DNA from: Modestobacter excelsi
Lineage (GTDB): Bacteria > Actinomycetota > Actinomycetes > Mycobacteriales > Geodermatophilaceae
Assembly (NCBI RefSeq): GCF_005930495.1
Contig: NZ_SJEX01000038.1
Span: 1 to 45,713 of the forward strand
Direction of reading: 5' to 3'
DNA: 45,713 nucleotides
Shown here: in pieces, positions 8,114-43,964 of the stretch
How the letters are laid out: the number at the start of each line of letters is the position of its first letter
Numbering within the stretch: position 1 is the stretch's first letter
Made by a program: the position numbers and the translations under genes
The notes under the pieces: model-generated
Told to the model about the DNA's origin: nothing
Seen by the model: the letters and a program-made list of their open reading frames with translations, nothing else
The model's database searches: none

Positions 8114-8174
8114 GAAGGACCCCCGTGCCCCCCGCCCTTCGCAGGCTCAGGGCGGGACCCTGCACGGGGGCCGT
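8114..8174 (+). repeat. Repeat element R1 (stop-codon-anchored double inverted repeat)
   Basis: GAAGGA begins 1 nt after the stop of the polyprenyl synthase. Outer arms are GGACCCCCGTGC (8117-8128) and GCACGGGGGCC (8162-8172), complementary except for a bulged A. The inner stem is perfect: CCCGCCCT (8131-8138) with AGGGCGGG (8149-8156). The element overlaps the first 16-17 codons of the downstream sugar dehydrogenase as annotated. Confidence 0.85.
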
Positions 8175-9381
8175 GGTGCTCTCCGCCGTGCTGCTCGTGC
8201 TCGCTGCCTGCGGCGGTGACGCCCCTGGCGCGGAGGGGGACGAGGCGGCCACCGACGTGCCGGACCGCGCGCAGCCCTCGTCGACGGCCGGCGTCCCGGC
8301 GCTCGACGTGCAGGTGCTCGCCGACGGCCTGGACCACCCGTGGGACGTGGCGCAGGCGCCGGACGGGACGCTGCTGGTCGACGAGCGCGGTGGCGGGTTC
8401 ACCGCCGTCCGCCCCGACGGGTCGGTCCGCTCGGTCGACGCCGACCTCGACGACCTCTTCGCCACCGGGGAGACGGGCCTCATGGGCCTGGTGCTCGACC
8501 CCGCCTTCGCCGACAACCGGCGCTTCTACACCTGCCAGGGCGTCCAGCAGGACGGCGACGCCGAGATCCAGGTCATCGCCTGGACCGTCGACGAGGGCTG
8601 GAGCTCGGCCACCCGGGTCGCCGACCCGCTGCTCGGCGGCATCCCGGTCAACCAGCGCAGCGGCCGGCACGGCGGCTGCCGCCCGCGGTTCGACCCCACC
8701 GGGCAGCTGCTCGTCGGCACCGGCGACAACGCGGTGGGCAGCAACCCGCAGGACCTCGGCACGCTGGCCGGCAAGGTGCTGCGGATCGACCCGCAGACCG
8801 GGCAGCCCTCGGCCGGCAACCCGTTCCTGGACGCCGACGACCCGACCACCCGGCTGATCTGGAGCTACGGGCACCGCAACGTCCAGGGCATCGCGACCCA
8901 GCCGGGGACGCAGCAGGTGTACACGGTCGAGCAGGGCACCGACCGCGACGACGAGGTCAACCGGTCGGTCGCCGGTGGCGACTACGGCTACGACCCGGAC
9001 GGCCCACCCCCCGGCCCCGACGGCAGCTACGACGAGAGCGTGCCGATGACCGACCCGGACATCCCGGGCGCCATCCCCGCCGTGTGGTCCTCCGGGGACC
9101 CGACGATCGCCACCAGCGGCGCGACCTTCCTCGACGGCGCCCCGTGGGGCGGGTACGCCGGGGTGCTGCTGGTGGGCGTGCAGAAGGACACCGGGGTGCT
9201 CGGGCTGCGCATCGACGACCAGGGGCAGCTGGTCGAGCAGTTCCGGGTGCCCGAGCTGGAGGACTCCTACGGCCGGGTCCGCTCCCCGGTGCTGGGCTCG
9301 GACGGCGCGCTGTACCTCACCACCGACAACGGCGACGGTGCGGACCAGCTGCTCAGGGTGCGGCCGTCACCGGCAGGCTGA
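8125..9381 (+). CDS. PQQ-dependent sugar dehydrogenase (glucose/sorbosone dehydrogenase family), lipoprotein
   Basis: The 418-residue protein has a signal peptide with lipobox LAAC (lipidated Cys near residue 31), so it should be anchored outside the membrane. The mature part is a GSDH-type six-bladed propeller: LADGLDHPWDVAQAPDG, GETGLMGLVLDP, the RSGRHGGCR block, GDNAVGSNPQDLGTLAGKVLRID, and SYGHRNVQGIA are recognisable. The family oxidises aldose sugars with PQQ, but the true substrate is unknown. The start is uncertain. GTG 8125 lies inside repeat R1, so the Arg residues of the n-region are repeat-encoded; GTG 8173 or 8176 would give a shorter n-region with no positive charge. The 3' end overlaps the convergent P450 by 29 nt. 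Confidence 0.85.
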   Translation: MPPALRRLRAGPCTGAVVLSAVLLVLAACGGDAPGAEGDEAATDVPDRAQPSSTAGVPALDVQVLADGLDHPWDVAQAPDGTLLVDERGGGFTAVRPDGSVRSVDADLDDLFATGETGLMGLVLDPAFADNRRFYTCQGVQQDGDAEIQVIAWTVDEGWSSATRVADPLLGGIPVNQRSGRHGGCRPRFDPTGQLLVGTGDNAVGSNPQDLGTLAGKVLRIDPQTGQPSAGNPFLDADDPTTRLIWSYGHRNVQGIATQPGTQQVYTVEQGTDRDDEVNRSVAGGDYGYDPDGPPPGPDGSYDESVPMTDPDIPGAIPAVWSSGDPTIATSGATFLDGAPWGGYAGVLLVGVQKDTGVLGLRIDDQGQLVEQFRVPELEDSYGRVRSPVLGSDGALYLTTDNGDGADQLLRVRPSPAG

Positions 9382-10678
9382 GCGGTCCGCGGAGCACCGT
9401 CGCGACCCGGGGCACCGCACGGCCGGCCAGGCGCAGCCGTGGCGCCCGCTCGGCCAGCACGCGCAGCGCCACCTCCCCCTCCAGCCGGGCCAGGGGCGCA
9501 CCCAGGCAGTAGTGCACCCCGCCGGAGAACGCCAGGTGCGGCGCCGCCTGCTCGCGGTGCAGGTCGAACCGGTCCGGGTCCGGGTGCACCGCCGGGTCGC
9601 GGTTCGCGGCGGCCAGCAGCACCAGGACGCCGCTGTCCCGGCGCAGCGGTACGCCGCCGACCTCGACGTCGGCGTGCGCGAACCGGGCGGTCAGCTGGAC
9701 CGGCGGGTCGTAGCGCAGCGTCTCCTCCACCGCGGCCGCCGCGAGGGACGGGTCCTCGACCAGCGCGGCCCACTGGCCGGGCGTGCGCTGCAGGGCCTGC
9801 ACCGCGTTGCCGATCAGGTTGGTGGTGGTCTCGAAGCCGGCGACGAGCAGCAGCTGGGCCAGCGCCAGCACCTCGTCGGCCGTGGCGGTGCCGCCGTCGA
9901 CGGCGGCGGCGAGGGTCGAGACGACGTCCTCGCCCGGGTGCGCGCGGCGCTGGTCGAGCAGGTCCGCGAAGAGCCGGCGCAGTGAGCCGGTGGCCTCGGC
10001 GAGCTCGCGGGCGTGGCCGGGGGAGCGGACGCCGTCCAGGGCCGAGCCGACGGCGCGTCCCCAGCGGGCGAACCGCTCGCTGTCCACGTCCGGCACGTCG
10101 AGCAGGGCGGCGATGACCGTGATCGGCAGCGGGGAGGCGAGGTCGCGGACCAGGTCGAAGCGGCCCTCGCGGCGGCCCCGGGCCAGGGCGTCGTCCAGCA
10201 GCTCCGCGGTGACCCGCTCGGCCACCGCCCGGTAGTGCTCGAGCCGGCGCGGCGCGAAGGCGGGTTGGGCGAGCCGGCGCAGCCGGGTGTGGTCGGGCGG
10301 GTCGAGGGTCAGCAGCGAGAGGTCGACCGGCTCGAGCAGTGAACCGCCCCCGGCCTCCTCCGCCGTCCCGCCGAGCCGGCTCGCTCCCGCGGAGGGCTGG
10401 ACGCCGAACCGGCGGTCACGGAGCACCGCCTCGCACGAGGCGTGCGTGGCCACCGAGGTCAGCCCGGTGCGGCTGCGCACCGGACCGCCGCGGACCTCGG
10501 CCTCCCGCAGCGACGCGAGGACCGGGTACGGGTCCAGCCGCCACGGCCGGTGCAGCAGCCGCGCGACGCCGTCCCCGCGGACGGCCAGGGCCAGCCCCCC
10601 GGCCCGTATCGCCCCGAGCCGGGCCCCCAGCACGACGTCCGAGCGGAGCCGGCTCACTCGCTGTCGTGCGGTCTCCAC
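9353..10678 (-). CDS. Cytochrome P450 (class I bacterial type)
   Basis: This soluble heme monooxygenase has 441 residues from GTG 10678. The heme-binding loop FSGGVHYCLG carries the axial Cys, the I-helix oxygen-activation motif AGFETT is intact, and the K-helix ExxR appears in EETLRYDPP. Redox partners are not adjacent; korAB next door uses ferredoxin but a functional link is only speculation. The in-frame GTG 10717 would add 13 residues. No Shine-Dalgarno is seen for either start, and CACACT 7 nt before GTG 10678 could make the mRNA leaderless. Substrate is unknown. Confidence 0.93.
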   Translation of the reverse strand: METARQRVSRLRSDVVLGARLGAIRAGGLALAVRGDGVARLLHRPWRLDPYPVLASLREAEVRGGPVRSRTGLTSVATHASCEAVLRDRRFGVQPSAGASRLGGTAEEAGGGSLLEPVDLSLLTLDPPDHTRLRRLAQPAFAPRRLEHYRAVAERVTAELLDDALARGRREGRFDLVRDLASPLPITVIAALLDVPDVDSERFARWGRAVGSALDGVRSPGHARELAEATGSLRRLFADLLDQRRAHPGEDVVSTLAAAVDGGTATADEVLALAQLLLVAGFETTTNLIGNAVQALQRTPGQWAALVEDPSLAAAAVEETLRYDPPVQLTARFAHADVEVGGVPLRRDSGVLVLLAAANRDPAVHPDPDRFDLHREQAAPHLAFSGGVHYCLGAPLARLEGEVALRVLAERAPRLRLAGRAVPRVATVLRGPLSLPVTAAP

Positions 10679-10820
10679 ACGTCGGAGTGTGCCTGCCGTG
10701 CGAGGACCGGATGGCACCGCGTAGCGGGTGACGCTGAGCGGGGGGCCGGAGGCCCTCCCGAGGTGGCACGGCCAACGGCTCAGCGCCGCCCGGGACGGCT
10801 CCTGGCCGCGGTGTCATCCG

Positions 10821-11935
<1,115 letters not shown>

Positions 11936-11939
<4 letters not shown>

Positions 11940-13969
11940 AGGACTGCTCCGTTCGAGGCGGCCCCGACGGTGTGCTCGGCGGGGATCGCGGAGGGGATCG
12001 CGGTGGGGGTGGTGCCGGTGCTGTCGATGACGTCCTGCAGGACGGCGGCCAGCTCGGCAGCCCGGAAGGGCAGCCCGCGGACCTGGGTGTGGCTGTGCAC
12101 GTCGATGAGGTACTTGGCCCGCAGCAGCAGGGCCAGCTGGCCGAGGTTCATCTCGGGGCAGACGACGCGGTCGTAGCGGGCGAGGATCTCGCCCAGGTCG
12201 GCCGGCAGCGGGTTGAGGTGGCGCAGGTGCACCTGGGCGACCGACCGGCCCGACGCCCGGATCCGCCGGCAGGCGGCGCCGATCGGGCCGTAGGTGGAGC
12301 CCCAGCCGATGACGGCGACCGTCGCGTCGCCGGCCGGGTCGTCGACCTCGGTCGCCGGGATCGACGCGGCGATGCCGTCGATCTTGGCCTGGCGGGTGCG
12401 GGTCATGAAGTCGTGGTTGGCGGGGTCGTAGGAGATGTTGCCGGTCTTGTCGGCCTTCTCCAGCCCACCGATCCGGTGCTGCAGGCCGGCGGTGCCCGGC
12501 ACCGCCCAGGGGCGGGCCAGCGTGTCCGGGTCGCGGAGGTAGGGCAGGAACTGGCCCTCGGTGCCGTCCTCGGCGCTGCCGTTGGGCGCGCTCGCGAACT
12601 CCACCCGCAGGTCGGGCAGCTCGTCCACGGCCGGGATCGACCACGGCTCGGCGCCGTTGGCCAGGTACCCGTCCGACAGCAGGATGACCGGGGTCCGGTA
12701 GGTCAGGGCGATCCGGGTCGCCTCGAGCGCGGCGTCGAAGCAGTCACCGGGGGAGCGCGGTGCGATCACCGGGACCGGGGCCTCGCCGTTGCGGCCGAAC
12801 AGCGCCTGCAGCAGGTCCGACTGCTCGGTCTTGGTGGGCAGACCGGTCGAGGGGCCGCCGCGCTGCACGTCGACGATGAGCAGCGGCAGCTCGGTCATGA
12901 CCGCCAGACCGATGGTCTCGGCCTTGAGGGCGACACCCGGACCGGACGTCGTCGTCACGCCCAGGGCCCCGCCGAAGGAAGCGCCGAGCGCGGCACCGAT
13001 CCCGGCGATCTCGTCCTCGGCCTGGAAGGTGCGCACGCCGAAGGACTTGTGCCTGGACAGCTCGTGCAGGATGTCGCTGGCCGGGGTGATCGGGTAGGCG
13101 CCGAGGAAGACCGGCAGGCCCGAGCGCTGCCCGGCGGCGACGATCCCGTAGGCCAGCGCCTGGTTGCCGGAGATGTGCCGGTACTTGCCCGGGGCCATCG
13201 GGGCCGGCTTGACCTCGTAGGAGACCGCGAAGGCCTCCGTCGTCTCGCCGTAGTTGAAGCCGGCGCGGAAGGCGGCGATGTTGGCCGCGGCGATCTGCGG
13301 CTTGCGGCGGAACTGGCGCTCGAGGAAGCGGATGGTGCCCTCGGTGGGCCGGTGGTACATCCAGCTCAGCAAGCCGAGGGTGAACATGTTCTTGCTCCGC
13401 TCGGCCTCCTTCTTGCCGAGCCCGGAGTCGGCGAGCGCGTCGGTGGTCATCGAGGTCAGCGGCACGCTGACCAGCTGCCACTTGTCCAGCGAGCCGTCCT
13501 CGAGCGGGTTGGACGCGTAGCCGACCTTCGCCAGGTTGCGGGGGGTGAACTCGTCGGAGTCGGCGATGAGCAGGCCGCCGCCGGGGAGGTCGACGAGGTT
13601 GGCCTTCAGCGCCGCGGGGTTCATCACGACCAGGACGTCGGGTGCGTCACCCGGCGTCATGATGTCGTGGTCGGCGAAGTGCAGCTGGAAGGAGCTGACA
13701 CCCGGCAGGGTCCCCGTTGGTGCCCGGATCTCGGCGGGGAAGTTGGGCAGGGTCGACAGGTCGTTGCCGAACGTGGCGGTCTCGCTGGTGAAGCGACCGC
13801 CGGTCAGCTGCATGCCGTCCCCGGAGTCGCCGGCCAGCCGGATGACGACGCGGTCGAGCTCGACGACGCTCTTGACGAGGCCACCAGGGGCAGAGCTGTG
13901 GGCTGCGCGGTCCATGTCGGTGGCAACGCCGCTCGCGGCGGGGCTGATTCCGGGGTTCGTGCCAGTCAT
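11936..13969 (-). CDS. korA: 2-oxoglutarate:ferredoxin oxidoreductase, alpha (fused gamma-alpha) subunit
   Basis: The 677-residue protein begins with a gamma-type domain (RLAGDSGDGMQLTGGRF, about residues 45-230). The alpha domain follows (GNQALAYGIVAAG, YPITPASDILHEL, QAEDEIAGIGAALGASFGG), ending in a transketolase-C-like region. This fused layout is standard for the actinobacterial enzyme. ATG 13969 is preceded by GGAGG (13984-13980 on the reverse strand), and TAACCT (13998-13993) may be the -10. It is divergent from htpX across a 158-nt spacer and co-directional with korB. Confidence 0.94.
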
Positions 13970-14127
13970 GTGTGAGGTACCTCCGACCGGTCAGGTTACG
14001 TGCGGGCCGCCAGGTCCGACCGGCGAGCGGGGGAACGTGAGGCAACCCACACAGGGTCGCCTTGCCTCGCCCGGGCAGGGGCGCTGGTCAGGGGAACGGC
14101 GGCTGCGCCGACCGCGTTCTACCCGGC

Positions 14128-14988
14128 GTGCAACGGTGGAACAACGGGTGCAAGACCGCGGTGCTGCTCGGCCTCATGGCCGGCGTCATCGTGGGAGTCG
14201 GCAGCTTCTTCGGCCGGGGCGGGCTCGTCATCGCCCTGGGGGTCGCACTCGGCGTCAACGGCTGGGCGTACTTCCACTCCGACAAGCTGGCGCTGCGGGC
14301 CATGCGCGCCTTCCCGGTCACCGAGACGCAGGCACCGCAGATGTACGCGATCGTGCGGGAGCTGGCCACCGAGGCCCGCCAGCCGATGCCGCGGCTCTAC
14401 GTCAGCCCGACCAACCAGCCCAACGCCTTCGCCACCGGCCGCAACCCGCGCAACGCCGCGGTCTGCTGCACCCAGGGGATCCTCGAGCTGCTCGACCGTC
14501 GCGAGCTGCGCGGCGTGCTGGCCCACGAGCTCTCGCACGTCTACAACCGCGACATCCTGATCAGCTCGGTCGCCGGGGCGATGGCCACGGTGATCACCTA
14601 CCTGGCGCACATGGCGATGTTCGCGTCGCTGTTCGGCGGCCGCTCCGACGACCGGGAGGGCGGCAGCGCGCTCGGCGGGCTGCTGCTGGTCTTCCTCGGC
14701 CCGGTCGCCGCCGGCCTGGTCCAGATGGCGGTGAGCCGCAGCCGGGAGTACCAGGCCGACGCCTCGGGTGCGCAGCTGTCGCACGACCCGCTGGCGCTGG
14801 CCAGTGCCCTGGCGAAACTCGAGCGGGGCGTCGCCGCCCGGCCGCTGCCCCAGGACGACCGGCTGGTGACCCAGAGCCACCTCATGATCGCCAACCCGTT
14901 CCGCGGTCAGGGGATGGCCTCGATGTTCGCCACCCACCCGCCGATGGCGGAGCGGATCGCCCGGCTGCAGCAGATGGCCCGGGATTAG
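14128..14988 (+). CDS. htpX: HtpX-like membrane zinc metalloprotease
   Basis: HtpX is a stress-related M48 endopeptidase that degrades misfolded membrane proteins. The 286-residue protein has two N-terminal membrane segments (about 11-27 and 31-48). The active site is H133-E-L-S-H137, the third zinc ligand lies in SREYQAD, and membrane helices follow the HExxH. GTG 14128 gives the family N-terminus ([15 protein letters not shown]); the frame is open to ATG 14062, but that extension looks non-coding. Its TAG stop runs directly into repeat R2. Confidence 0.93.
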
Positions 14989-15048
14989 AAGGACCCCGCT
15001 GCCCCCCACCACTCGCTCCGCTCGCGGCGGGCCCCTGCAGCGGGGCCG
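14988..15048 (+). repeat. Repeat element R2
   Basis: The G of the htpX TAG stop is the first base of GAAGGACC. Outer arms GGACCCCGCTGC (14991-15002) and GCAGCGGGGCC (15037-15047) are complementary with one bulged A. The inner part is CCCCCCACCACTCGC then GCTCGCGGCGGGCCCC. It ends just upstream of the promoter of the SGNH hydrolase gene. Confidence 0.9.
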
Positions 15049-15064
15049 GCCGGGCACTGCTGCC

Positions 15065-15070
15065 TAGGCT
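15065..15070 (+). promoter_or_regulatory. -10 box of a leaderless promoter for the SGNH hydrolase
   Basis: TAGGCT ends 6 nt before GTG 15077 and there is no room for a Shine-Dalgarno site, so transcription probably starts at the start codon itself. No strong -35 is seen; the expected position abuts the right arm of R2. Confidence 0.55.
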
Positions 15071-15076
15071 CGGGTC

Positions 15077-15859: not shown

Positions 15860-15952
15860 GCCCCGCGGCCACCCGACCTGACCGACGATCGTGGACGGTC
15901 CGCCCGGCCCCGACGGCGGGGGAGCCTGCCGGTCCGGTGCGGCCCGGTCTCC

Positions 15953-17257: not shown

Positions 17258-17310
17258 CATCACCTCGGTGCGACGGCGGCCTCACGGCAGGCGGTCACTC
17301 CCCGTTGCGT

Positions 17311-17327
17311 CCCCAGCAGCGCTGGGG
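17311..17327 (-). terminator. Hairpin terminator after arsR1
   Basis: CCCCAGC and GCTGGGG form a perfect 7-bp stem with a 3-nt loop, 3 nt past the arsR1 stop. There is no U-tract, as is usual in high-GC actinobacteria. Confidence 0.6.
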
Positions 17328-17330
17328 GTC

Positions 17331-27876: not shown

Positions 27877-30416
27877 TTGGCCGAGCCCATGGTCCCCGAG
27901 CAACTGGGGACTCCGTTCCTCCGGCGGCCTTGGACGATCGCGCTCCTCGGCGGCGTCGTGGCCCTCGTCTTCGCCGTGCCCACGCTGCCCGGGGCTTGGT
28001 CCACGCCCCCGTACTGGGCGGTCGTCGCGGTGCTCGTCGCGTTCGTCCTGACGGAGTCGGTCCAGCTGGACCTCGAGTTCCGTCGGCAGACCTTCGCCAT
28101 CTCGCCGTCCGAGGTCGCCATGGTGGTCGGTCTCGTCGAGGTGGGTGGCGTCTGGACCGCGGTGGTGCGGGTGGCCGTCATGGTGCTCATCGGCGCCCGT
28201 CAGTCGCTTCCGCTGCCGAAGGTGGCGTTCAACGCGGCCAACTCGGTCGTCGAGGTCTGCACGGCGCTGCTCGTGCTCTCGCTGCTGCCTGAACTGGACC
28301 TCGACGACCCGCTGACCTGGCTGTGCCTGGTGTTCGCCCTGGTGGCCGCCACCGTGGTGGGGATGCTGCTGACCTGCGCGGCGATCAGCCTCAGTGACGG
28401 CTGGCCCGGGCGGCAGATGGTCCTGTCCGCCGTGCCGGCGCTGGTCGTGGCGCCGATGAGCGTGATCGTCGGCGTCATCGCGCTGCTGCTGACCTGGGAG
28501 ACGCCCTGGGCCTGGGCGCTCATCGTCCCGCTGGTGATCGGTGTGGTGGCGATCTTCCGGCAGTCCACGCACGCCGTCCGCGAGCGGCGCACCGTCCAGC
28601 GGGTCTACGACTTCGCCCGCCGGGTCGAGCTCGTCACGCCCGACGAGGCGGGCACCCGGGAGATCGTGAACGCGGTGCGCGAACTGCTCAACGCCGACCG
28701 GGTGGCGCTGTGGCTGCCGCCCTACCTCGACGAGGGCCCACAGCTGGTCGTCGACGCTGCCGACGGTGAGCTGGGGTGGTACGACGGCCCCGGAGACCCC
28801 GACGACCTGCTCCGCCGTCGTGCGCTGGCCCCCGACTGCGGGGGCCCGGTGCTCTCCTCGGCCGCCCGGGCCGACGGTGCCGAGCTCGCCGCACTGGTCC
28901 GCCGGGGTGCCCGTGAGGTGCTCGGTGCCCCGGTGACGACCGCCGCGGGTGAGCCCGGCTACCTCGAGGTCTGCGACCGGCGCAGTGACGTGGTCACCTT
29001 CGACCCGGGCGACCGGGGCGCCCTGGACTCGATGCTCACCCACGTCAACGCGGCGATCCGGCAGCAGCAGCTGCTGAGCCAGATCCGGCACGACGGCGAC
29101 CACGACCGGCTGACCGGGCTGCCCAACCGTCAGCGGCTCGCGGTCGAGATCGACGCCGTGCTGGTCGCCGAGCCGGCGACCGCCCGGGCGGGGCTGGTCC
29201 TCGCGACGCTGGACGGCTACACCAACGTCACCGACACCCTCGGGCACGCGGCCAGCGACGAGCTGCTGCTGGTCACCGCCGGACTGCTCAGGGAGCACGC
29301 GCCACCGCAGGCCGTCGTCGCCCGGATGGAGGGCGGCCAGTTCGCCGTCCTGCTGCCGGGGCTGTCGCTGCCGGCCACCGAGCGGGCCGCCCGTCGGCTC
29401 CGCGAGGCGGCCTCCACCCGCGCCCGGGTCGCCGGGCTGGACCTCGAGGTGTCGCTGACCATCGGTGTGGCCGCCGCGCCGGTGCACGGCACCGACTCCG
29501 GGACCCTCATCCAGCGGGCCGACGTCGCCCTGCTGGCCGCGCACAGCTCCGGCGGGGTCGCCACCTACCACCCGGTGCTGGACCAGCAGAGCCTGCGCCG
29601 GCTGCAGCTCGGCACCGAGCTGGAGACGGCGATGGCGGAGGAGCAGATCACCGTCGTCTTCCAGCCGATCGTGGACGCCCGGACGGCCGACATCGTCTCG
29701 GTGGAGACGCTGGTCCGCTGGGCGCACCCGCGCTACGGCGACGTCCCGCCGGACGACTTCATCAGCCTGGCCGAGCAGATCGGCCGGATCGGGCCGTTGA
29801 CCGACCACGTCCTGGACCGCGCCCTGGACCGCTGCCGCCGCTGGCTGGACCAGGACATCGCGATCTCCGTGGCGGTCAACCTCTCCGCGCGCTGCCTGTC
29901 CGAGCCCGACCTGGTCGCCCGGGTGCGCGGGGCGCTGCGGCACCACGGGGTCCCCGGCGAGCTGCTGACCCTCGAGCTCACCGAGGGCAGCGTCGTCGAT
30001 ACACCGTCCGCAACAGCAACGTGCTGGGCGAGCTGCACGCGCTGGGGCTGCGGCTGTCGATGGACGACTTCGGCACCGGCTACTCGTCGCTGTCCCAGCT
30101 CCGGCAGCTGCCGATCGACGAGCTGAAGATCGACAAGTCGTTCGTGCTGGGCATGTCCACCAGCCAGAACGAGTCGTTCATCGCCCGGTCGATCGTCGAG
30201 CTGGCGCACAACCTGGGGCTGCGGGTGGTCGCCGAGGGCGTCGAGGACGAGGTGACCCGCGACCTGCTGGCCCAGATGGGCTGCGACAAGCTGCAGGGGT
30301 TCCTGGTCAGCCGGCCGCTGCCGGAGGACCGGCTGGAGGGCTGGCTGCTGGCCAGGACCGGCGTCCGCAGTGCCGCACCGGGAGCCAGGCACCGCCGGCT
30401 GTTCGTCCGGACCTGA
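27877..30416 (+). pseudogene. Membrane GAF-GGDEF-EAL cyclic-di-GMP protein, broken by a frameshift near 30000
   Basis: From TTG 27877 (or ATG 27889) the frame encodes about seven N-terminal membrane helices (~residues 15-225), a GAF-like region (~230-400), a GGDEF domain and the first half of an EAL domain. At codon ~708 (VVD, base 30000) the frame shifts. The rest of the EAL domain (MDDFGTGYSS, ELKIDKSFV, VAEGVED) is in the frame ending at 30416. One missing base (GAT[G]ACACC) would restore DDTVRN. The GGDEF signature is degenerate (EGGQF), so cyclase activity is unlikely; EAL is ETL with the catalytic Glu kept, so an intact protein would be a phosphodiesterase. It is either a real mutation or a sequence error. 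Confidence 0.85.
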
Positions 30417-30417: not shown

Positions 30418-30476
30418 GAAGGACCCCGCGTCCCCCACCACTCCCGAGCTCGTGGCGGGGCCCTGACGCGGGGCCG
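30418..30476 (+). repeat. Repeat element R3
   Basis: GAAGGA starts 1 nt after the stop of the EAL frame. Outer arms are GGACCCCGCGTC (30421-30432) and GACGCGGGGCC (30465-30475). The inner stem is CCCC(CA)CCAC with GTGG(C)GGGG, fully paired apart from the CA/C internal loop. Confidence 0.9.
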
Positions 30477-30555
30477 CTCCAGGGCGTCACCGAGCGGCTG
30501 TTACAGTCGTCGGGCACGGTCCGAGGGGGTCCGCCGGTCGCCGAGAACGGCTTGG

Positions 30556-34784: not shown

Positions 34785-34878
34785 CGACGACCTGGGGCCA
34801 GTGGGACCCCGCCACCGGCGTGCCCCGGGGCTCCTCTCGAGGAGCTCGGTCGCGCCGTGACGCGGCCCGGCGTCCCCT

Positions 34879-34954
<76 letters not shown>

Positions 34955-34986
34955 CCACCTGACCGACGACCGAGGAACGAGGCGCT

Positions 34987-35472: not shown

Positions 35473-35516
35473 CCCCGCACCCTGGCCTGCACCGCACCCG
35501 ACAAGGAAGAGACCCA

Positions 35517-36413: not shown

Positions 36414-36415
36414 CC

Positions 36416-36475
36416 GAAGGACCCGGTCGCCCCCCACCACTCGCAAGCTCGCGGCGGGGCCCTGCGACCGGGCCG
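36416..36475 (+). repeat. Repeat element R4
   Basis: GAAGGA starts 2 nt after the nusG stop. Outer arms are GGACCCGGTCGC (36419-36430) and GCGACCGGGCC (36464-36474). The inner part reads CCCCCCACCACTCGC AAG CTCGCGGCGGGGCCC. It lies between nusG and rplK, genes usually co-transcribed. Confidence 0.9.
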
Positions 36476-36522
36476 TTCCAGTCACTCTCACGCCGTTCCA
36501 TCCAGTCACCAAGAAGGAAGTC

Positions 36523-36951
36523 ATGCCCCCCAGGAAGCGGTTGACCGCGGTCATCAAGCTCCAGATCAACGCCGGCGCGGCCACCCCTGCGCCGCCCGTG
36601 GGCCCGGCCCTCGGTCAGCACGGCGTGAACATCATGGAGTTCTGCAAGGCATACAACGCTGCGACCGAGTCGCAGCGCGGCAACGTCATCCCGGTCGAGA
36701 TCTCGGTCTTCGAGGACCGGTCGTTCACCTTCGTCACCAAGACGCCGCCGGCAGCGCGCATGCTGCTCAAGGCCGCCGGGGTGGAGAAGGGCTCGGGCGA
36801 GCCGCACAAGACCAAGGTCGCCACCGTCACCCGTGACCAGGTCCGGGAGATCGCCCAGACCAAGATGGCCGACCTCAACGCCAACGACCTCGAGCAGGCC
36901 GAGAAGATCATCGCCGGCACCGCCCGGTCGATGGGCATCACGGTCCGATGA
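36523..36951 (+). CDS. rplK: Ribosomal protein uL11
   Basis: This 142-residue uL11 binds 23S rRNA at the GTPase-associated centre. [24 protein letters not shown] and the C-terminal [19 protein letters not shown] are clear. ATG 36523 has GAAGGAAG upstream. Its TGA shares two bases with GAAGG of R5. Confidence 0.98.
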
Positions 36952-37010
36952 AGGACCTCGGTGCCCCCCAGCCCTCGCTCCGCTCGAGCCGGGGCCCTGC
37001 ACCGAGGCCG
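36950..37010 (+). repeat. Repeat element R5
   Basis: The rplK stop TGA overlaps the element start (TGAAGGACC). Outer arms are GGACCTCGGTGC (36953-36964) and GCACCGAGGCC (36999-37009). These carry two compensatory changes relative to R2 (T-A and G-C pairs), keeping the stem. The inner stem is CCCC...CTCG/CGAG...GGGG. Confidence 0.9.
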
Positions 37011-37087
37011 TTCCAGTAACTCATTCGTGGGAGGGCCGGCCAGGCCCGTTCACCACACGACCCCGTCCCGGGGAAGGGAGCACCACC

Positions 37088-37807
37088 ATGGCCAAGCACG
37101 GCAAGAACTACCGCAAGGTCGCCGAGCTCGTCGACGACGGCACGCTCTACAGCCCGCTGCAGGCCGCCGGCCTCGCCAAGCAGACCTCGACCACCACGTA
37201 CGACGCCACCGTCGAGGTCGCGATCCGCCTCGGGGTCGACCCCCGCAAGGCCGACCAGATGGTCCGCGGCACGGTCAACCTGCCGCACGGCACCGGCAAG
37301 ACCGCCCGCGTCATCGTCTTCGCGACCGGTGACAAGGCCGCCCAGGCCGAGGCCGCCGGCGCCGACGTCGTGGGCTCCGACGACCTGATCGAGCGGATCC
37401 AGGGCGGCTTCCTGGACTTCGACGCCGCGATCGCGACGCCCGACCAGATGGCCAAGGTCGGCCGGATCGCCCGCATCCTCGGCCCCCGTGGCCTGATGCC
37501 GAACCCGAAGACCGGCACCGTGACCCCCGACGTCACCAAGGCCGTCAACGACATCAAGGGCGGGAAGATCAACTTCCGCGTCGACAAGCAGGCCAACCTG
37601 CACCTGGTGATCGGCAAGACCTCCTTCGACGAGGCCAAGCTGGTGGAGAACTACGCCGCCGCGCTCGACGAGGTGCTCCGCGCCAAGCCGTCGGCCGCCA
37701 AGGGCCGGTACGTCAAGAAGGTCACCGTCTCGACCACCATGGGCCCGGGCATCCCGGTCGACCCGAACCGCACCCGCAACCTGCTGGTGGACGAGCCCGC
37801 CGTCTGA
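37088..37807 (+). CDS. rplA: Ribosomal protein uL1
   Basis: This 239-residue uL1 of the ribosomal stalk base contains [22 protein letters not shown] and [16 protein letters not shown] 37088 follows GGAAGGGAG. In many genomes rplJ-rplL follow at some distance; here the next gene is a convergent lsr2, so the ribosomal block ends at this point. Confidence 0.98.
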
Positions 37808-37808
37808 C

Positions 37809-37870
37809 GGAACGCCCCCTGCCCCCCACCACTCGCGAAGCTCGCGGAGGGGCCCTGCAGGCAGCCCGTT
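37809..37870 (+). repeat. Repeat element R6 (arms mismatched)
   Basis: It starts 1 nt after the rplA stop as GGAACGCCCCCTGC (37809-37822). The right side GCAGGCAGCCCGTT (37857-37870) pairs only in part (GCAGG and GTT). The inner part CCCCCCACCACTCGCGAAGCTCGCGGAGGGGCCC is standard. The last bases form the lsr2 TAA stop. It is the only copy with a poor outer stem. Confidence 0.75.
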
Positions 37871-38222
37871 AGTGGGCGGCTTCGAAGGCCTCGACGACGC
37901 TGGCCGGGATGCGGCCGCGGTCGCTCACCTCGTGGCCGTTCTTGCGGGCCCACTCGCGGATGGCGCCGGCCTGCTCGCGGTCCATCCGGCCACCGCCGCC
38001 GGTCGCCCGGGAACGGCCCGCACCGGAGGCGCGGGTACCGCGGCTGCTGACCTTGCGCGCGGCCGAGACGTACTTGCCGAGCACGTCGCGCATCTCGTTG
38101 GCGTTCTTCTCGGAGAGGTCGATCTCGTACGTCGTCCCGTCGAGGGCGAAGGAGACGGTCTCGTCAGCGGAGATGCTGTCATCGAGGTCGTCGCTCAGGA
38201 TGACCTGGACCTTGCGTGCCAT
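37869..38222 (-). CDS. lsr2: Lsr2-type nucleoid-associated protein
   Basis: Lsr2 is the actinobacterial H-NS analogue that coats AT-rich and horizontally acquired DNA. The 117-residue protein has an N-terminal dimerisation domain ([14 protein letters not shown]...[21 protein letters not shown]) and a C-terminal DNA-binding helix pair with the AT-hook-like RGRIP ([22 protein letters not shown]). The 140-nt upstream spacer is more AT-rich than its surroundings. The gene borders lysS in many actinobacteria. Confidence 0.96.
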
Positions 38223-38262
38223 TTGTCTGCTGCTTCCTGTTGCGCCGGGCATGTGGACTGTC

Positions 38263-38268
38263 GTATTA
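38263..38268 (-). promoter_or_regulatory. Candidate -10 of lsr2
   Basis: On the reverse strand TAATAC lies about 40 nt before the lsr2 ATG. No good -35 is seen at 17 nt. Confidence 0.4.
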
Positions 38269-38362
38269 CCGCCCCGTGATCGACAACCCATTCCACCACA
38301 CCTGCGTGCGTTGACACCAATGTCCGCGCAATTGCTCGCCGGAATGACCCCGAACAGGTGAC

Positions 38363-39958
38363 CTATTGGTGCAGCGGACGAACGAGGGGGAACAGGATCG
38401 TCTCCCTGATGCCCAATCCGGTGAGCGTCATCATCAGCCTGTCGATGCCCATCCCGACACCGGCGGTCGGCGGCATGCCGTACTCGAGGGCCTCCAGGAA
38501 GTCCTCGTCGAGGACCATCGCCTCGGGGTCGCCGGCGGCGGCGAGCAGCGCCTGCTGGGTGAACCGCTCCCGCTGGGCCACCGGGTCCACGAGCTCGGAG
38601 TAGCCGGTGCCGCGTTCGATGCCGCCGATGTACAGGTCCCACTTCTCGGCCAGGCCCGGCTGGGACCGGTGTGCCCGGGTGAGCGGCGAGGTGTCCAGCG
38701 GGTAGTCGATGACGAACGTCGGCGACTGCAGCGTGTGCTGGACCAGCGCCTCGAAGACCTCCTCGACCACCTTGCCGGGCAGCCAGGCCGGGTCGACGCC
38801 GACGTCGTGGGCGGCGGCGAGGGCGCGCAACTGCTCGACCGGGGTCTGCGGGGTGACCTCCTCCCCCACCGCCTCCGACACCGCGGTGTAGAGCGGGATC
38901 TGCGGCCACTCTCCGGAGAGGTCCAGTTCCGTGCCGTCGTGATGACGCGCCACGTGGTCGCCGAACAGGGCCGCACAGCATTCCTGGACGAGCTCACGGG
39001 TGATCCGGGCGCCGTCGGAGTAATCGCCGTACGCGGCATAGAACTCGAGCATCGCGAACTCCGGCGAGTGCGAGGAGTCAGCGCCCTCGTTGCGGAAGTT
39101 GCGATTGATCTCGAACACGCGGTCCAGCCCGCCGACGATGCAGCGCTTGAGGAACAACTCCGGTGCGATGCGCAGGTACAGGTCGAGGTCGAAGGCGTTC
39201 ATGTGCGTGCGGAACGGTCGCGCGGCAGCGCCGCCGTGCACCGTCTGCAACATCGGCGTCTCGACCTCGAGGAACCCGCGACCGGTGAGCCCCGCGCGCA
39301 ACGAGCTCATCACCGCCGCCCGTTCCTGGACGGTCCGCCGCGCCTCGTCGCGCACGATGAGGTCGACGTACCGGCGGCGGACCCGCAGTTCCTCGCTCAT
39401 CGGCTTGTGCGCGACCGGCAGCGGGCGCAGCGCCTTGGCCGCGAGCTCCCAGGAGTCGGCGAAGACCGACAGCTCACCGCGTCGCGACGTCCCGACCTCA
39501 CCGGTGACGAGGACGTGGTCGCCGAGGTCGACGTCGGCCTTCCAGGCCGCGAGCGCCTCCTCCCCCACCCGGTCGCGGGAGAGCATGACCTGCAGCTCGG
39601 TGTCGCCCTCGCGCAGCGTCGCGAAGCAGAGCTTGCCGGTGTTGCGGGAGAAGATGACCCGGCCGGTGACGCCCACCTGCTCGCCGGTCATGGTGTCCGG
39701 CTCGAGGTCGGGGTGCTCGGCGCGCACGTCGGTGAGGCTCGCGGTGCGGGCCACGACGACGGGGTACGGGTCGATCCCGGACTCGCGGAGCCGGTCGAGC
39801 TTTGCCCGCCGGACCCGCAGCTGCTCGGGCAGCTCGTCCTCGGGTGCTGCGACCTGGCCGGGGCCCTGGTCCGACCCCGCGCCCCGATCCGCTCCTCGCT
39901 CGTTCCTCGCCGCGGTGCTCCCGGGGCTGTCGTCGGACGGACGTGCTTCCTCACTCAC
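38363..39958 (-). CDS. lysS: Lysyl-tRNA synthetase, class II
   Basis: The 531-residue enzyme charges tRNA-Lys. The OB-fold anticodon domain covers ~residues 45-190. Class II motifs are visible: motif 1 in [11 protein letters not shown], motif 2 in [17 protein letters not shown], and motif 3 in [13 protein letters not shown]. It starts at GTG 39958, 10 nt after coaX. The first ~40 residues ([13 protein letters not shown]...[14 protein letters not shown]) are unconserved and include GAGCGAGGAGCGG-type sequence shared with the nadB-nadC spacer. Confidence 0.96.
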
Positions 39959-39968
39959 GGCGACGAGC

Positions 39969-40781
39969 CTACGGGCGGGACGACGGCGTCCCCCCACCGC
40001 TGGCCTGGTGGCGCTCGAAGGCCAGCCGCAGGCCGTGCACGGTGAGATCGGGCTCACGCTCGCCGATCGACCGGCAGCTGTCCACCACCAGCGGGTGCAG
40101 CCCGCCGGTGGCCACGACCACCGGCGACGCGCCGAACTGGGCGATGAGCTCCGCGGCGATCCGCGCGACCAGCCCGTCGACCAGGCCGGCGAAGCCCAGC
40201 ACCACACCCGACTGCAGCGCTGCGACGGTGTTCTTGCCGATGGCGTGGGTCGGCACGGTCAGCTCGACCGAACGCAGCTGGGCCGCCCGGTTCGCCAGCG
40301 CCTCCAGGCTCACCTCGAGTCCGGGTGCCAGTGCCCCGCCGAGGAACTGCCCGTCCGGTCCCACGGCGTCCACGTTGGTCGAGGTGCCGAAGTCGACGAC
40401 GACGACCGGCCGCCCGTGCCCGTCGGGTCGCTTCCCGAACAGCTCGTGCGCGGCCAGCGCGGTGACCACCCGGTCCGCGCCGACCTCCCGCGGGTTGTCC
40501 ACGTGCAGCGGGACGCCGGTGCGCACGCCCGGGCCGATCAGGGTGACCGGGACGGCGAGCCGGTCCAGCAGCTGGCGCAGCGCCGGCAGCAGCGCAGGCA
40601 CGGTGGAGCAGACCGCCACGCCGGTGACCTCGGTGTCCCGGAGCAGCGCGCGCCAGAGCATGTGCAGCTCGTCGGAGGTGGCCCGTGCGTGCGTGGTGAC
40701 CCGCCAGCAGCCGACCCGCCGGTCACCGTCGAAGGTGGCCAGCACGGTCTGGCTGTTGCCGACGTCCACCGCGAGCAGCAC
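39969..40781 (-). CDS. coaX: Type III pantothenate kinase
   Basis: This 270-residue ASKHA-fold kinase catalyses the first step of coenzyme A synthesis. [11 protein letters not shown] is the phosphate-1 motif, [11 protein letters not shown] and [14 protein letters not shown] the others, and [15 protein letters not shown] closes the pantothenate site. It starts at GTG 40781, only 3 nt after nadC, so it belongs to the same operon. The final ~10 residues are a G/S/P tail. Confidence 0.95.
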
Positions 40782-40784
40782 CGC

Positions 40785-41720
40785 TCACTCCTCCCGCAGG
40801 TCGAGGGCGAGGTCGAGGACCGGCGAGGAGTGGGTGAGCGCGCCGACGGAGAGGAAGTCCACCCCGGTGTCGGCGACCTCCCGGGCCAGGTCGAGGGTCA
40901 GCCCGCCGGTGGCCTCGAGCTCCACGTCGAGGTCCCCCACCAGCGCGACCACCGCCCGCAGCTGGTCGGGGGTCATGTTGTCCAGCAGCAGGAAGTCCGC
41001 GCCGGCGTCCACCGCCTCGCCGACCTGCTCGATCGTGTCGCACTCGACCTGCACGGTGATCCGCGGTGCGCGCTCGCGGACCAGCGCGACCGCCGCGGCC
41101 ACCGAGCCGGCGGCCGCCACGTGGTTGTCCTTGACCATCGCGACGTCGTAGAGCCCCATCCGCTTGTTCGACCCCCTGCCGCAGCGCACCGCGTACTTCT
41201 CCAGCGGGCGCAGGCCCGGGGTCGTCTTGCGGGTGTCCAGGACCACGGCGCCGGTGCCGGCCACCGCGTCGGCCCAGGCGCGGGTGTGCGTGGCGATGCC
41301 GCTGGCCCGGCTGGCGATGTTCAGCGCGCTGCGCTCGGCGGCCAGCAGCGCCCGCACCGGGCCGCGGACGGTGAGCAGCACGTCCCCGCGGCGCACCCGG
41401 TCACCGTCGGTCGCGCCGGCGGTCAGCGCGGCGCCCGGGGCCAGCCGGGTGAAGACGCGGGCGGCCACGGGCAGGCCGGCGACCACCCCGTCGGCGCGGG
41501 CGACGAGGTCAGCCGTGCCGTACTGCGCGCCGGGCACGGTGGCCGCGCTGGTGACGTCGTAGCTGACCGCGACGTCGGGCTCGCGCGGCAGTGGGGCGCC
41601 GCCGGTGAGGTCCTCCGTGAGGGTGCGCTCGACCAGCTCGTCGACCCAGCCGGCGGTCAGGCCCGTGCCGGTCAGGTCGGTCGGGTCGGTGGGCAGCGCC
41701 CTCGTCACGGGCTCGCTCAC
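40785..41720 (-). CDS. nadC: Quinolinate phosphoribosyltransferase (nicotinate-nucleotide pyrophosphorylase)
   Basis: The 311-residue enzyme makes nicotinate mononucleotide from quinolinate and PRPP. TRKTTPGLR, KDNHV and ECDTIEQV...GADFLLLDNM are conserved. The usual GGGxNHR block reads CGRGSNKR, with Lys at the position of a His that contacts substrate in the M. tuberculosis enzyme. It starts at GTG 41720, after a GAGCG-rich spacer. It acts downstream of NadB; nadA is not in the window. Confidence 0.95.
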   Translation of the reverse strand: MSEPVTRALPTDPTDLTGTGLTAGWVDELVERTLTEDLTGGAPLPREPDVAVSYDVTSAATVPGAQYGTADLVARADGVVAGLPVAARVFTRLAPGAALTAGATDGDRVRRGDVLLTVRGPVRALLAAERSALNIASRASGIATHTRAWADAVAGTGAVVLDTRKTTPGLRPLEKYAVRCGRGSNKRMGLYDVAMVKDNHVAAAGSVAAAVALVRERAPRITVQVECDTIEQVGEAVDAGADFLLLDNMTPDQLRAVVALVGDLDVELEATGGLTLDLAREVADTGVDFLSVGALTHSSPVLDLALDLREE

Positions 41721-41790
41721 CGCGTCATGCCTCGCTCCGCTCGGTGGTTCGTCCCGCTCCTCGCTCGCTGGCGCTCGCTGCGATGCTCGC
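41721..41790 (-). repeat. GAGCGA-rich spacer repeat between nadB and nadC
   Basis: This 70-nt spacer on the reverse strand is built from GAGCGAGC-like units: TGAGCGAGC at both ends, CAGCGAGCG, GCGAGCGAGGAGCGG, and GAGCGGAGCGAGG. It includes a mini-ORF ATG-ACG-CGG-TGA overlapping the nadC GTG start. CCGCTCCTCGCTCG recurs in the 5' end of lysS (about 39891), and CTCGCTCCGCTCG recurs in R2 and R5. Confidence 0.55.
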
Positions 41791-43461
41791 TCACCAGGAC
41801 ACCTCCACGGCTTCCCCCACGGGGCGGCGGGTCAGCGCCACCTCGCCGTCGCCGTCCAGCCGGACGTCCAGGTGCACGCGCCACTCCTCCTCCGCCTCGG
41901 GGTGGTCCTCCCGCCAGTGGCAGCCGCGGGTCTCCTCGCGTGCGGCCGCCGCGGCGGTGATCGCGGTCGCGACGGTGAGCAGGTCGGTGGTCTCCCAGCC
42001 GGGCACCCCGGGGACGGCGGTGGTCCGCTCCCCCAGCGCGGCCAGCCGCCCGGCGGCCTCCGCCAGCCCGGTGCCGCTGCGCAGCGCCCCCACCCGCGCG
42101 GACATCGTGCCGGTGAGGCCGGCGCGGGCCGCGGCGTCGACGAGCGCCTCCGGACGGGCGTCGACCCGCTCGGCGGGTGCGGGCACCGGCAGCTCCCGGG
42201 CCAGTGCCTCGCCGATCCGCCCGGCGAAGACCAGCCCCTCGAGCAGCGAGTTGGACGCCAGCCGGTTGGCACCGTGCACGCCGGTGCAGGCCACCTCGCC
42301 GCAGGCGTAGAGCCCGGGCACCGTGGTGCGGCCGGACAGGTCGGTGGCCAGCCCGCCGGAGGCGTAGTGCGCGGCCGGGGTGACCGGGACCAGAGCTGTC
42401 GTCGGGTCGATGCCGGCCTCGCGGCAGCGGGCCACGATGGTCGGGAACCGCGTGGCCAGCCCGGGGACCCCGCGGGCGTCGAGCTCCACGTGGTCGACGC
42501 CGTCGCGCAGCTGCACCCGGGTGATCGCCTTGGCCACCACGTCGCGCGGCGCCAGCTCGGCCAGCGGGTGGGTGCCGACCATGAACCGCTCGCCGGCGGC
42601 GTCGCGGAGCACGGCACCCTCCCCCCGCAGCGCCTCGGAGACCAGCGGCTGCTGTCCGCGCGCGCCCGGCCCGAGGTACAGGGCGGTGGGGTGGAACTGG
42701 ACGAACTCGAGGTCGGTGGCGACCGCACCGGCCCGCAGCCCGAGCGCGACGCCGTCGCCCGTGGAGACCGCCGGGTTGGTGGTGGCGGCGTACACCTGGC
42801 CCATCCCGCCGGTGGCCAGCACGACGGCCCGCGCGCGCACCGCCCCGACGCCGTCGGCGCTGCCCTCGCCGAGCACGTGCAGGGTGACGCCGGCGACCCG
42901 GCCGGTGACGTCCCGGACGACGTCGAGCACCATCGCGTGCTCGATCAAGGTGGTCCCGGGGTCTGCGGCGACGGCGTCCCGGAGGGCGCGCTGCACCTCA
43001 GCGCCGGTGGCGTCGCCGCCGGCGTGCACGATCCGGTCGGTGGAGTGCCCGCCCTCGCGGGTGAGCAGCAGGTGACCGGCGCCGTCGCGGTCGAAAGCCG
43101 CCCCCCAGTTGATCAGCTGGTGCAGCCGGTCCGGCCCCTCGGTGACCAGGGCCCGCACCGCCGCCGGGTCGCACAGCCCGACCCCGGCGACCTCGGTGTC
43201 CCGGGCGTGCGCCGCCGGGGTGTCGGTCGCGCTGAGGACGGCGGCGATCCCGCCCTGCGCCCAGCGGGTCGAGCCGTCGTCGACCTCGACCTTGGTGACG
43301 ACGGCGACCGACAGCCCCGCCGCCCGGGCGTGCAGGGCCACGCAGAGCCCGGCGACGCCGGACCCGACGACGCAGACGTCCGCGGACAGCTCCCAGCCGG
43401 GTGCCGGTGCCCGCAGCCGCAACGGCAGCCCGGTGGCCCGGGCGACCGCCGACCCGGTCAA
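41791..43461 (-). CDS. nadB: L-aspartate oxidase
   Basis: The 556-residue flavoenzyme oxidises L-aspartate to iminoaspartate, the first step of de novo NAD. The FAD motif is [15 protein letters not shown], the capping-domain [20 protein letters not shown] and [12 protein letters not shown] are present, and [23 protein letters not shown] binds FAD. It starts at TTG 43461, which overlaps the panD stop (TTGA), implying translation by coupling; no independent ribosome site is seen. Confidence 0.95.
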
Positions 43462-43964
43462 CGGACCGGTACGCCCAGCGGAGGAAGGACCCCGTCCTGC
43501 CCTCCGCTCGCCAGCTCGCGAGGGAACCCGGGACGGGGCCGGAGACCATCGACCGCGAGCGGACTCCGTTGGTGGTCCGTGGCACCGGGCACCGGGGCGG
43601 AGGGGTCACCGCCGAGCTCGACGATGCGGTTGTCGGCGTCGACGTGCACCACCCGGGGGAGGTGGCTCTTCGCCTCGGACTCGTCCATCTGCCCGTAGCT
43701 GATCAGGATGACCAGGTCGCCGGGGTGCACCAGGTGCGCGGCGGCGCCGTTGATGCCGATGACCCCGGTGCCCCGCTCCCCGGGGATCACGTAGGTCTCC
43801 AGCCGGGCACCGTTCGTGACGTCGACGATCGCCACCTGCTCGCCGGGCAGCAGGTCTGCGGCGTCCAGCAGGTCCTCGTCGATGGTCACCGAGCCGACGT
43901 AGTGCAGGTCGGCCTGGGTCACCGTGGCCCGGTGGATCTTGCTCTTGAGCATGGTGCGCATCAT
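43458..43964 (-). CDS. panD: Aspartate 1-decarboxylase with repeat-derived C-terminal tail
   Basis: PanD makes beta-alanine for pantothenate. The pro-enzyme cleaves itself between Gly24 and Ser25 (HYVGSVTID) to form the pyruvoyl group. ATG 43964 overlaps the panC stop (ATGA). The length, 168 residues, exceeds the usual 120-140. The extra tail from about residue 145 ([12 protein letters not shown] then [10 protein letters not shown]) is the in-frame translation of repeat R7. A later ATG (43961) is possible. Confidence 0.95.
43484..43541 (+). repeat. Repeat element R7 (inside panD, reverse orientation to the gene)
   Basis: Outer arms GGACCCCGTCC (43487-43497) and GGACGGGGCC (43531-43540) are complementary with one bulged A. 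The inner stem is CCCTC (43500-43504) with GAGGG (43520-43524). It is the one copy not anchored at a forward stop codon: it is read on the reverse strand within the 3' end of panD, ending about 24 nt before the panD stop. Confidence 0.85.

What the first reader, a model, noticed from the sequence alone, without database searches (positions are those of the whole stretch)
8114..43541. A seven-copy, stop-codon-anchored repeat family with covarying outer stems
R1 8114, R2 14988, R3 30418, R4 36416, R5 36950, R6 37809, R7 43484. Six copies begin (GAAGGA or GGAACG) within -2 to +2 nt of the stop codon of a forward gene (polyprenyl synthase, htpX, GGDEF/EAL, nusG, rplK, rplA). The outer arms differ by copy but stay complementary: CCCCGTGC/GCACGGGG, CCCCGCTGC/GCAGCGGGG, CCCCGCGTC/GACGCGGGG, CCCGGTCGC/GCGACCGGG, CCTCGGTGC/GCACCGAGG, CCCCGTCC/GGACGGGG. 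Compensatory change in both arms points to selection for structure, or to repair or copying through a hairpin. On the reverse strand the inner A-C mismatch becomes a G-U pair. Candidate roles: U-less terminators, 3'-end stabilisers that uncouple nusG/rplK/rplA, or a REP/MITE family targeting stop codons.
Basis: partly seen in the sequence, partly recalled or inferred. Interest (0 to 1): 0.85.

Follow-up and report, generated by a model that had tools for sequence, protein, structure and literature searches.

The report
Stop-codon-anchored mobile DNA hairpin family
In a family of soil and rock bacteria, hundreds of copies of a small DNA hairpin sit where genes end; they behave more like tiny mobile elements whose arms are kept matched as DNA than like the RNA stop signals they resemble.

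Summary
In detail: seven related ~64-nt hairpins lie in the window and six abut a forward stop codon. The window is from Modestobacter (Geodermatophilaceae). A covariance model finds 54 copies in 764 kb of the genome (about 370 if extrapolated) and matches in 101 of 112 family genomes. 45 of 54 copies start -3 to +5 nt from a same-strand stop, against 37 of 2000 random intergenic points (within -6..8).

Covariation is very strong but not RNA-like. In the outer stem, G.T (33) is no commoner than A.C (40), and two-sided changes exceed one-sided ones (367 to 96). SRP RNA of the family gives 176:0 and 2 to 43. Related Modestobacter genomes (flanks 89-99% identical) carry no copy, a different copy or a reversed copy at the same stop. 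Per stop, copies are as frequent at codirectional as at convergent gene ends. After rplA, 19 of 21 loci with a copy also have a separate hairpin.

Best reading: a non-autonomous REPIN-like mobile palindrome that lands at stop codons in one main orientation, its stem constrained as folded DNA. No Y1 (RAYT) transposase was found in 108 family genomes, so the mobiliser is unknown.

The parts
8114..8177 (+). R1: copy at +1 after the TGA of the polyprenyl synthase gene (7102-8112); stem CCCCCGTGC/GCACGGGGG; its right end runs into the start region of the next gene (called at 8173)
14988..15052 (+). R2: copy whose first G is the third base of the TAG stop of the M48 peptidase (htpX-like) gene (14128-14988); stem CCCCGCTGC/GCAGCGGGG
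30418..30480 (+). R3: copy at +1 after the TGA (30414-30416) that ends the EAL reading frame; stem CCCCGCGTC/GACGCGGGG
36416..36479 (+). R4: copy at +2 after the TAG of nusG; stem CCCGGTCGC/GCGACCGGG; absent or different in related Modestobacter genomes
36950..37014 (+). R5: copy overlapping the TGA of rplK (T|GAAGGACC); stem CCTCGGTGC/GCACCGAGG; last rplK codon differs from most relatives shown; reversed copy in G087
37806..37872 (+). R6: degraded copy directly after the TGA of rplA, filling the gap to the convergent Lsr2 gene
43484..43545 (+). R7: copy in reverse orientation to its host gene, read through as part of the C-terminal tail of aspartate decarboxylase (panD, minus strand 43458-43964)

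Best explanation
The repeats are copies of a non-autonomous mobile palindrome, REPIN-like, widespread in the Geodermatophilaceae. One unit is about 64-66 nt: a conserved left end (GAAGGACC, with an extrahelical A), a variable complementary stem, a conserved inner hairpin with a frequent A-C mismatch and a CCCT internal bulge, and a right end GGCC, followed by GTTCC in many copies. Shown: copies differ in presence, sequence and orientation between related genomes at the same stop codon; they start next to stop codons in one main orientation; mismatches in the outer stem show no wobble preference. Inferred: the unit is copied and inserted through a folded DNA form (single-strand hairpin or cruciform) recognised by an unknown enzyme that needs the ends, apex and mismatch features but not a given stem sequence; insertion favours the stop codon, and only junctions that leave or rebuild a stop survive. 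The constraint on pairing acts at copying, or through replication-time correction of one arm by the other, more than on the transcript. Resident copies would then be mostly dispensable and decay.
For: 54 copies in 764 kb. Left end within -6..8 nt of a same-strand stop in 45 of 54 own copies and 114 of 150 relatives' copies, against 37 of 2000 random intergenic points. At the same gene ends related genomes have no copy (R4: G087, G092, G106; R5: G092, G106, G105), a different copy or a reversed one (R5: G087), with 89-99% identity of the coding flank. The exact left end varies from near control level to 185 per genome in the family. Outer-stem G.T 33 vs A.C 40, against SRP 176:0 and tRNA 60:0. 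Two-sided 367 vs one-sided 96 cells, SRP 2 vs 43. In six Modestobacter loci that share one copy after the EAL gene, three show one-sided stem changes and none a two-sided one, by eye. Equal frequency per non-overlapping stop: 27 of 352 vs 17 of 202, p 0.75. Separate hairpin in 19 of 21 named loci with a copy after rplA.
Against: No mobiliser was found: Y1_Tnp in 0 of 108 genomes; RVT_1 and IS110 transposases do not follow the copies. No target-site duplication was shown and no excision intermediate could be looked for. Over all 18 pairs A.C exceeds G.T (95 vs 50, p 0.0002), mainly through one inner pair (32 vs 4); without it 63 vs 46, p 0.13. That excess would be G.U on the opposite strand, so an antisense RNA constraint on the inner hairpin is not excluded. 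After rplA the copies of G085, G087 and G090 differ at only 2 to 5 of 50 bases, so they look like one inherited copy, and six of seven Modestobacter genomes have some copy there. The nusG end is filled in 34 of 63 named loci with recurrent loop types, so some copies may be old or kept by selection. The orientation bias would also fit a function in the sense transcript. Per gap, copies are commoner in convergent gaps (17 of 101 vs 27 of 352, p 0.012). 29 of 150 relatives' and 7 of 54 own copies abut no called stop at either end. R3 and its G087 counterpart look like one insertion that changed a stem pair on both sides, so resident copies can also change in concert.
Confidence: 0.65

Rival explanations
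1. RNA 3'-end element: U-less terminators or mRNA 3' stabilisers that act in the sense transcript and are kept by selection at gene ends.
For: Orientation bias and stop adjacency; stable folds for R3, R5, R7; strong covariation; nusG end filled in 34 of 63 named loci; per gap, more frequent in convergent gaps.
Against: No wobble preference in the outer stem; equal frequency per stop; a separate hairpin in 19 of 21 loci with a copy after rplA; copies lie between genes that related species keep close together without one; no Rfam match in the window apart from tRNAs; copy number from near control level to 185 between genomes of one family.
Confidence: 0.18
2. DNA-level functional site, such as a cruciform or supercoiling/nucleoid-protein site at gene ends (as proposed for BIMEs), spread and homogenised by ectopic gene conversion.
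For: Outer-stem pairing constraint shows no strand preference; copies sit at 3' ends; conserved apex and mismatch suggest a sequence-reading partner.
Against: No model match in G001 and G029 and few in G017 (2) and G007 (4), while other genomes of the same genera have many; 140-kb and 40-kb stretches of the own genome without copies; no partner protein known.
Confidence: 0.1
3. Ordinary vertically inherited hairpins whose arms are kept matched by replication template switching, with no mobility.
For: Template switching is proposed to make two-sided changes in stems at once (PMC8794818, passages read); R3 and its G087 counterpart differ by a two-sided change.
Against: It does not explain hundreds of related copies with a conserved apex, nor presence, absence and reversal at the same stops among related genomes.
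Confidence: 0.05

Closest known systems
REPINs and REPs with RAYT transposases (PMC3116915, PMC2817692, PMC8266576: passages read; PMC3733652: passages and section 15 read)
   Same: High-copy extragenic palindromes at gene 3' ends; conserved ends with a variable complementary stretch and common compensatory changes (REPINs); stem mismatches needed for processing (E. coli REP); GTAG REPs often supply the TAG stop of the neighbouring ORF.
   Different: No conserved GTAG or CGTC head, a single ~64-nt hairpin with a conserved apex, no Y1 transposase found in 108 family genomes, and a left end fixed to the stop codon at single-base scale in one main orientation.
Intrinsic transcription terminators
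   Same: GC-rich hairpin after the stop codon.
   Different: No T-run; sequence-related across many genes; variable among related species; no enrichment per stop at convergent ends; usually upstream of another hairpin after rplA.
Integron attC sites (PMC2727003: abstract start in the search listing only; otherwise recalled)
   Same: Little sequence conservation with structural recognition, recombination through one strand; extrahelical bases and position after stop codons (recalled).
   Different: Dispersed behind core genes rather than in cassette arrays; no integrase link shown; core-site consensus not searched for.
MITEs and mycobacterial MIRU repeats (recalled)
   Same: Short non-autonomous repeats; MIRUs overlap stop/start codons.
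   Different: No target-site duplication shown; no sequence relation tested.

Membership tests
REP / REPIN | High-copy extragenic palindrome | tested here: met
   54 copies in 764 kb; 2 of 54 inside a called gene
REP / REPIN | Unpaired GTAG or CGTC head | tested here: not met
   Left flank and end of the 43 copies of at least 45 bits: no conserved GTAG or CGTC; the conserved part is GAAGGACC
REP / REPIN | Cognate Y1 (RAYT) transposase in the genome | tested here: not met
   PF01797: 0 of 108 family genomes; rings in 5 of 14 control genomes
REP / REPIN | Compensatory changes in the hairpin | tested here: met
   16 of 18 pairs with two-sided change; 399 two-sided cells vs 116 in shuffles
REP / REPIN | Excised intermediates or observed movement | not testable with these tools
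   No reads available; only presence/absence between species
Intrinsic terminator | T-run after the hairpin | tested here: not met
   Right flank of the same 43 copies shows no T-run
Intrinsic terminator | Enriched where transcription should end | tested here: inconclusive
   Per stop no: 27 of 352 codirectional vs 17 of 202 convergent, p 0.75; per gap yes: 17 of 101, p 0.012
Intrinsic terminator | Transcript 3' ends in the right arm | not testable with these tools
   No transcriptome held
Structured RNA motif | Helix tolerates G.U more than A.C on the sense strand | tested here: not met
   Outer stem 33 vs 40, all 18 pairs 50 vs 95, against 176 vs 0 (SRP) and 60 vs 0 (tRNA); a control on rplA terminator arms was too small (9 arms; 1 vs 1)
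Structured RNA motif | Known Rfam family | tested here: not met
   Only 4 tRNAs in the window at gathering scores
MITE | Target-site duplication | not tested
   Filled and empty sites were only inspected by eye; junctions vary, last codons and stops often differ
Integron attC | Core sites RYYYAAC and GTTRRRY (recalled) | not tested
   No search was run

The most novel reading that the evidence does not exclude
An unknown enzyme, not of the Y1 (RAYT) type, copies a folded-DNA hairpin into stop codons across a whole actinobacterial family: a stop-codon-seeking mobile element in which each new copy can carry a freshly rewritten but perfectly complementary stem, because only one arm is transmitted and the other is rebuilt from it.
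Probability: 0.25. Interest if true: 0.85.

Novelty: new variant of a known kind. Interest (0 to 1): 0.6.

Why it matters
Covariation in a repeated hairpin is usually read as evidence of RNA function. Here a simple G.U against A.C count separates constraint on DNA from constraint on the sense RNA, and a strongly covarying hairpin fails the sense-RNA reading. If the mobile reading is right, a bacterial family in which no Y1 transposase was found has its own class of small palindromic mobile DNA that uses stop codons as landing sites, which raises a testable question: what moves it and how it finds the stop. It also warns annotators against calling these copies terminators behind core genes such as nusG, rplK and rplA.

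Tried and rejected
RAYT partner: not found in the searched genomes. Reverse transcriptase (RVT_1 in 47 of 108 genomes; no match in G058, the genome richest in exact left ends, nor in G029) and IS110 transposase (71 of 108; none in the own genome) as required mobilisers: not consistent with the distribution of copies. U-less terminators: rejected as the general explanation. Stop-adjacent hairpins in general: of 69 other stops followed by a perfect stem of at least 10 pairs, the stem starts at 0-4 nt in 3, 5-9 in 17, 10-14 in 15, 15-19 in 11, 20-29 in 12 and further in 11; the tight anchoring belongs to this family, although 5-9 is also the commonest bin there. 'The stop codon is part of the element': of 8 own copies without a host stop (9 not adjacent to a called stop, less R3), 5 have TGA at +1 or TAG at +2, but only 2 of 36 in relatives, so undecided. 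TAG is enriched among stops with a copy in relatives (31 of 114 vs 69 of 914) but not significantly in the own genome (8 of 45 vs 76 of 672). Control on rplA terminator arms: too few. Literature: searches listed no paper on this repeat; the library holds open-licence papers only and only the listed entries were looked at.

Limits and rows dropped: of 56 model matches in 764 kb (E up to 0.1) the two weakest (22.4 and 22.1 bits; one is the opposite strand of another hit) were left out of the placement counts, but all 56 rows of alignment A4 were used in the pair counts. Of 154 matches in the named loci the tool aligned 150 (A5). Both alignments are fitted to the model. The model search of a genome scores a capped number of candidates (150, 47, 26), so those counts are lower bounds. 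The seven contigs taken for the census were chosen among contigs with a pattern hit, so 370 copies may be an overestimate. Relatives' counts come from one shared locus and are not independent. G.T and A.C counts are cells, not events; the SRP cells come from 29 distinct sequences and 8 G.U pair types. The control structures (RNAalifold for SRP, ARAGORN for tRNA) lean towards pairs that can form, so their zero A.C counts are somewhat favoured. Gene calls are from my own simple caller.
Full report
What is there. The window (74% GC) lies in a 5.26-Mb genome whose closest named matches are Modestobacter (best is M. altitudinis), family Geodermatophilaceae. Six abut a forward stop codon; the seventh, R7, is read through in reverse inside the tail of panD. 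R6 is degraded.

Family size and spread. GAAGGACCCYG occurs 75 times in the genome against 8 for the reversed control. A covariance model from 12 copies finds 150 places in the genome, which is the scoring limit, and 54 matches at E up to 0.0023 in 764 kb (window and seven whole contigs), or about 370 per genome. In the family 101 of 112 genomes have matches at E up to 1e-4. In a set of 200 genomes of the order 30 match, and 27 of these are of the family. The exact left end GAAGGACCCCG ranges from near control level (G029: 8 against 3; G017: 4 against 3) to 185 against 4 (G058).

Anatomy. Left end GAAGGACC with an unpaired A, a stem whose middle pairs vary widely, an inner hairpin with a frequent A-C mismatch and the apex TCGC..GCTCG, a CCCT bulge on the right, and right end GGCC, in many copies followed by GTTCCAG. 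A second type with a shorter stem (CCCCGTCC) and a CCTCT bulge is common. Three perfect 66-nt tandem units end a contig in G011, which supports these limits but could be an assembly effect.

Placement. With a simple codon-based gene caller, 45 of 54 own copies start -3 to +5 nt from a same-strand stop, the mode being +1 (24 copies). In the named relatives 114 of 150 start -4 to +3. Random intergenic points give 37 of 2000 within -6..8. Counting R3, whose gene is frameshifted, the own number is 46. Right-end-only adjacency (reversed copies) is 2 of 54 and 7 of 150; 7 of 54 and 29 of 150 abut no called stop. Reversed copies are seen after rplK in G087 and other genomes and after the EAL gene in three loci. 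Junctions after or inside the stop (T|GA, TA|G, TGA|, TGAN|) all occur. The last codon or the stop often differs from genomes without a copy: CGA for AAG in rplK, TAG or TAA for TGA in nusG.

Not a terminator in general. Per non-overlapping stop, copies are as frequent between codirectional genes (27 of 352) as at convergent ends (17 of 202; p 0.75). Per gap, convergent gaps hold more (17 of 101; p 0.012), as expected if each of the two stops is a target. No T-run follows. After rplA, 52 of 62 named loci have a separate GC-rich hairpin, and 19 of the 21 loci with a model hit there have it too; in the rows I read the copy lies between the stop and that hairpin. The window itself does not show this second hairpin after rplA. 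Related genomes have the same nusG-rplK and rplK-rplA spaces without a copy.

Turnover. Six same-genus genomes were compared with the window; flank identities are 89-99%. R1: no copy in G087, G106, G090 and G105, another sequence in G092, not covered in G085. R4: none in G087, G092 and G106; different in G085, G090 and G105. R5: none in G092, G106 and G105; different in G085 and G090; reversed in G087. R3: G087 looks like the same insertion with a two-sided change; G085 and G105 differ. After rplA the model finds a copy in the window and in five of the six; those of G085, G087 and G090 differ at only 2 to 5 of 50 bases and look like one inherited copy, while the window, G106 and G092 differ. 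Whether a different sequence means replacement or divergence is not settled in each case. After the EAL gene six Modestobacter loci share one copy; three of them show one-sided stem changes, none a two-sided one, by eye. Filled fractions in the named loci: nusG 34 of 63, rplK 23 of 62, rplA 21 of 62, EAL 19 of 68. At nusG recurrent loop types suggest some old copies.

Covariation and what it means. In 150 relatives' copies 95.4% of cells pair, 16 of 18 pairs show two-sided change, and two-sided cells number 399 against 116 in shuffles and 26-52 with slid partners. The own copies give 137 against 38. In the 11 outer pairs G.T is 11 and A.C 8 (own), 22 and 32 (relatives); 33 vs 40 is no difference (p 0.48). 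SRP RNA from 30 genomes of the family (29 distinct) gives G.U 176, A.C 0, and 34 distinct tRNAs of the named loci 60 and 0. One-sided against two-sided cells are 96 against 367 for the element's outer stem and 43 against 2 for SRP. Over all 18 pairs A.C exceeds G.T (95 vs 50, p 0.0002), chiefly through one inner pair (32 vs 4); without it 63 vs 46, p 0.13. So a sense-strand RNA helix is not what is conserved. The outer stem looks constrained as DNA; for the inner hairpin an antisense-strand preference is possible. A control on rplA terminator arms was too small to use.

Mechanism. The simplest account is a non-autonomous palindrome propagated in folded form. REPINs are the nearest precedent: they too combine conserved ends with a complementary variable part and common compensatory changes (PMC3116915, passages). 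E. coli REP processing needs the stem mismatches (PMC8266576, passages). GTAG REPs often supply the stop codon of the ORF before them (PMC3733652, section 15). But the defining partner was not found: Y1_Tnp in 0 of 108 genomes. Reverse transcriptases and IS110 transposases do not follow the copies. Template switching, proposed to make two-sided changes in stems (PMC8794818, passages), could account for the concerted arms.

Novelty. No paper on this repeat was listed, and Rfam has no match to it in the window at gathering scores. Works like a REPIN: likely. Is a REP/REPIN by its defining features: two were tested and not met (head motif, RAYT), so I do not file it there.

Noticed in passing
window about 41740-41788 (minus strand) and G000:C92:137747: A second, unrelated dispersed repeat (GAGCATCGCAGCGAGC...GAGCGAGGAGCGG) starts 2 nt after a stop codon in 2 of 4 pattern matches in 764 kb, and similar sequence follows rplA in some species. 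Another stop-adjacent repeat family may exist.
   Followed up: partly
window 37027-37060 and rplK-rplA spacers of relatives: A block GTGGGAGGGCC..GGCCCGTTCACCACACGA recurs between rplK and rplA in the loci displayed; it resembles an L1-binding site (recalled), so rplA may be autoregulated there.
   Followed up: no
window about 29990-30130: The GGDEF/EAL gene is frameshifted in this assembly: the EAL end is in another frame.
   Followed up: no
window 43458-43964 (minus): panD has a C-terminal tail of about 54 residues beyond its domain match, and R7 encodes part of it.
   Followed up: partly
window 8160-8180 and L185, L210, L175: At the R1 site the right end of the element touches the called start of the next gene; three relatives have ATG inside the right arm (GCATGG).
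   Followed up: no
G000:C3:1-140000 and G000:C92:1-40000: No element in these 180 kb, where about 12 would be expected; part of it has lower GC and weaker codon bias, so it may be acquired DNA.
   Followed up: partly
G000:C139:28265-28915 and same-genus genomes: An RVT_1 match in an open frame of about 480 residues is found in many genomes of the genus.
   Followed up: no
L271 (G011:C24 end): Three head-to-tail 66-nt units of the element at a contig end; real amplification or assembly effect.
   Followed up: no
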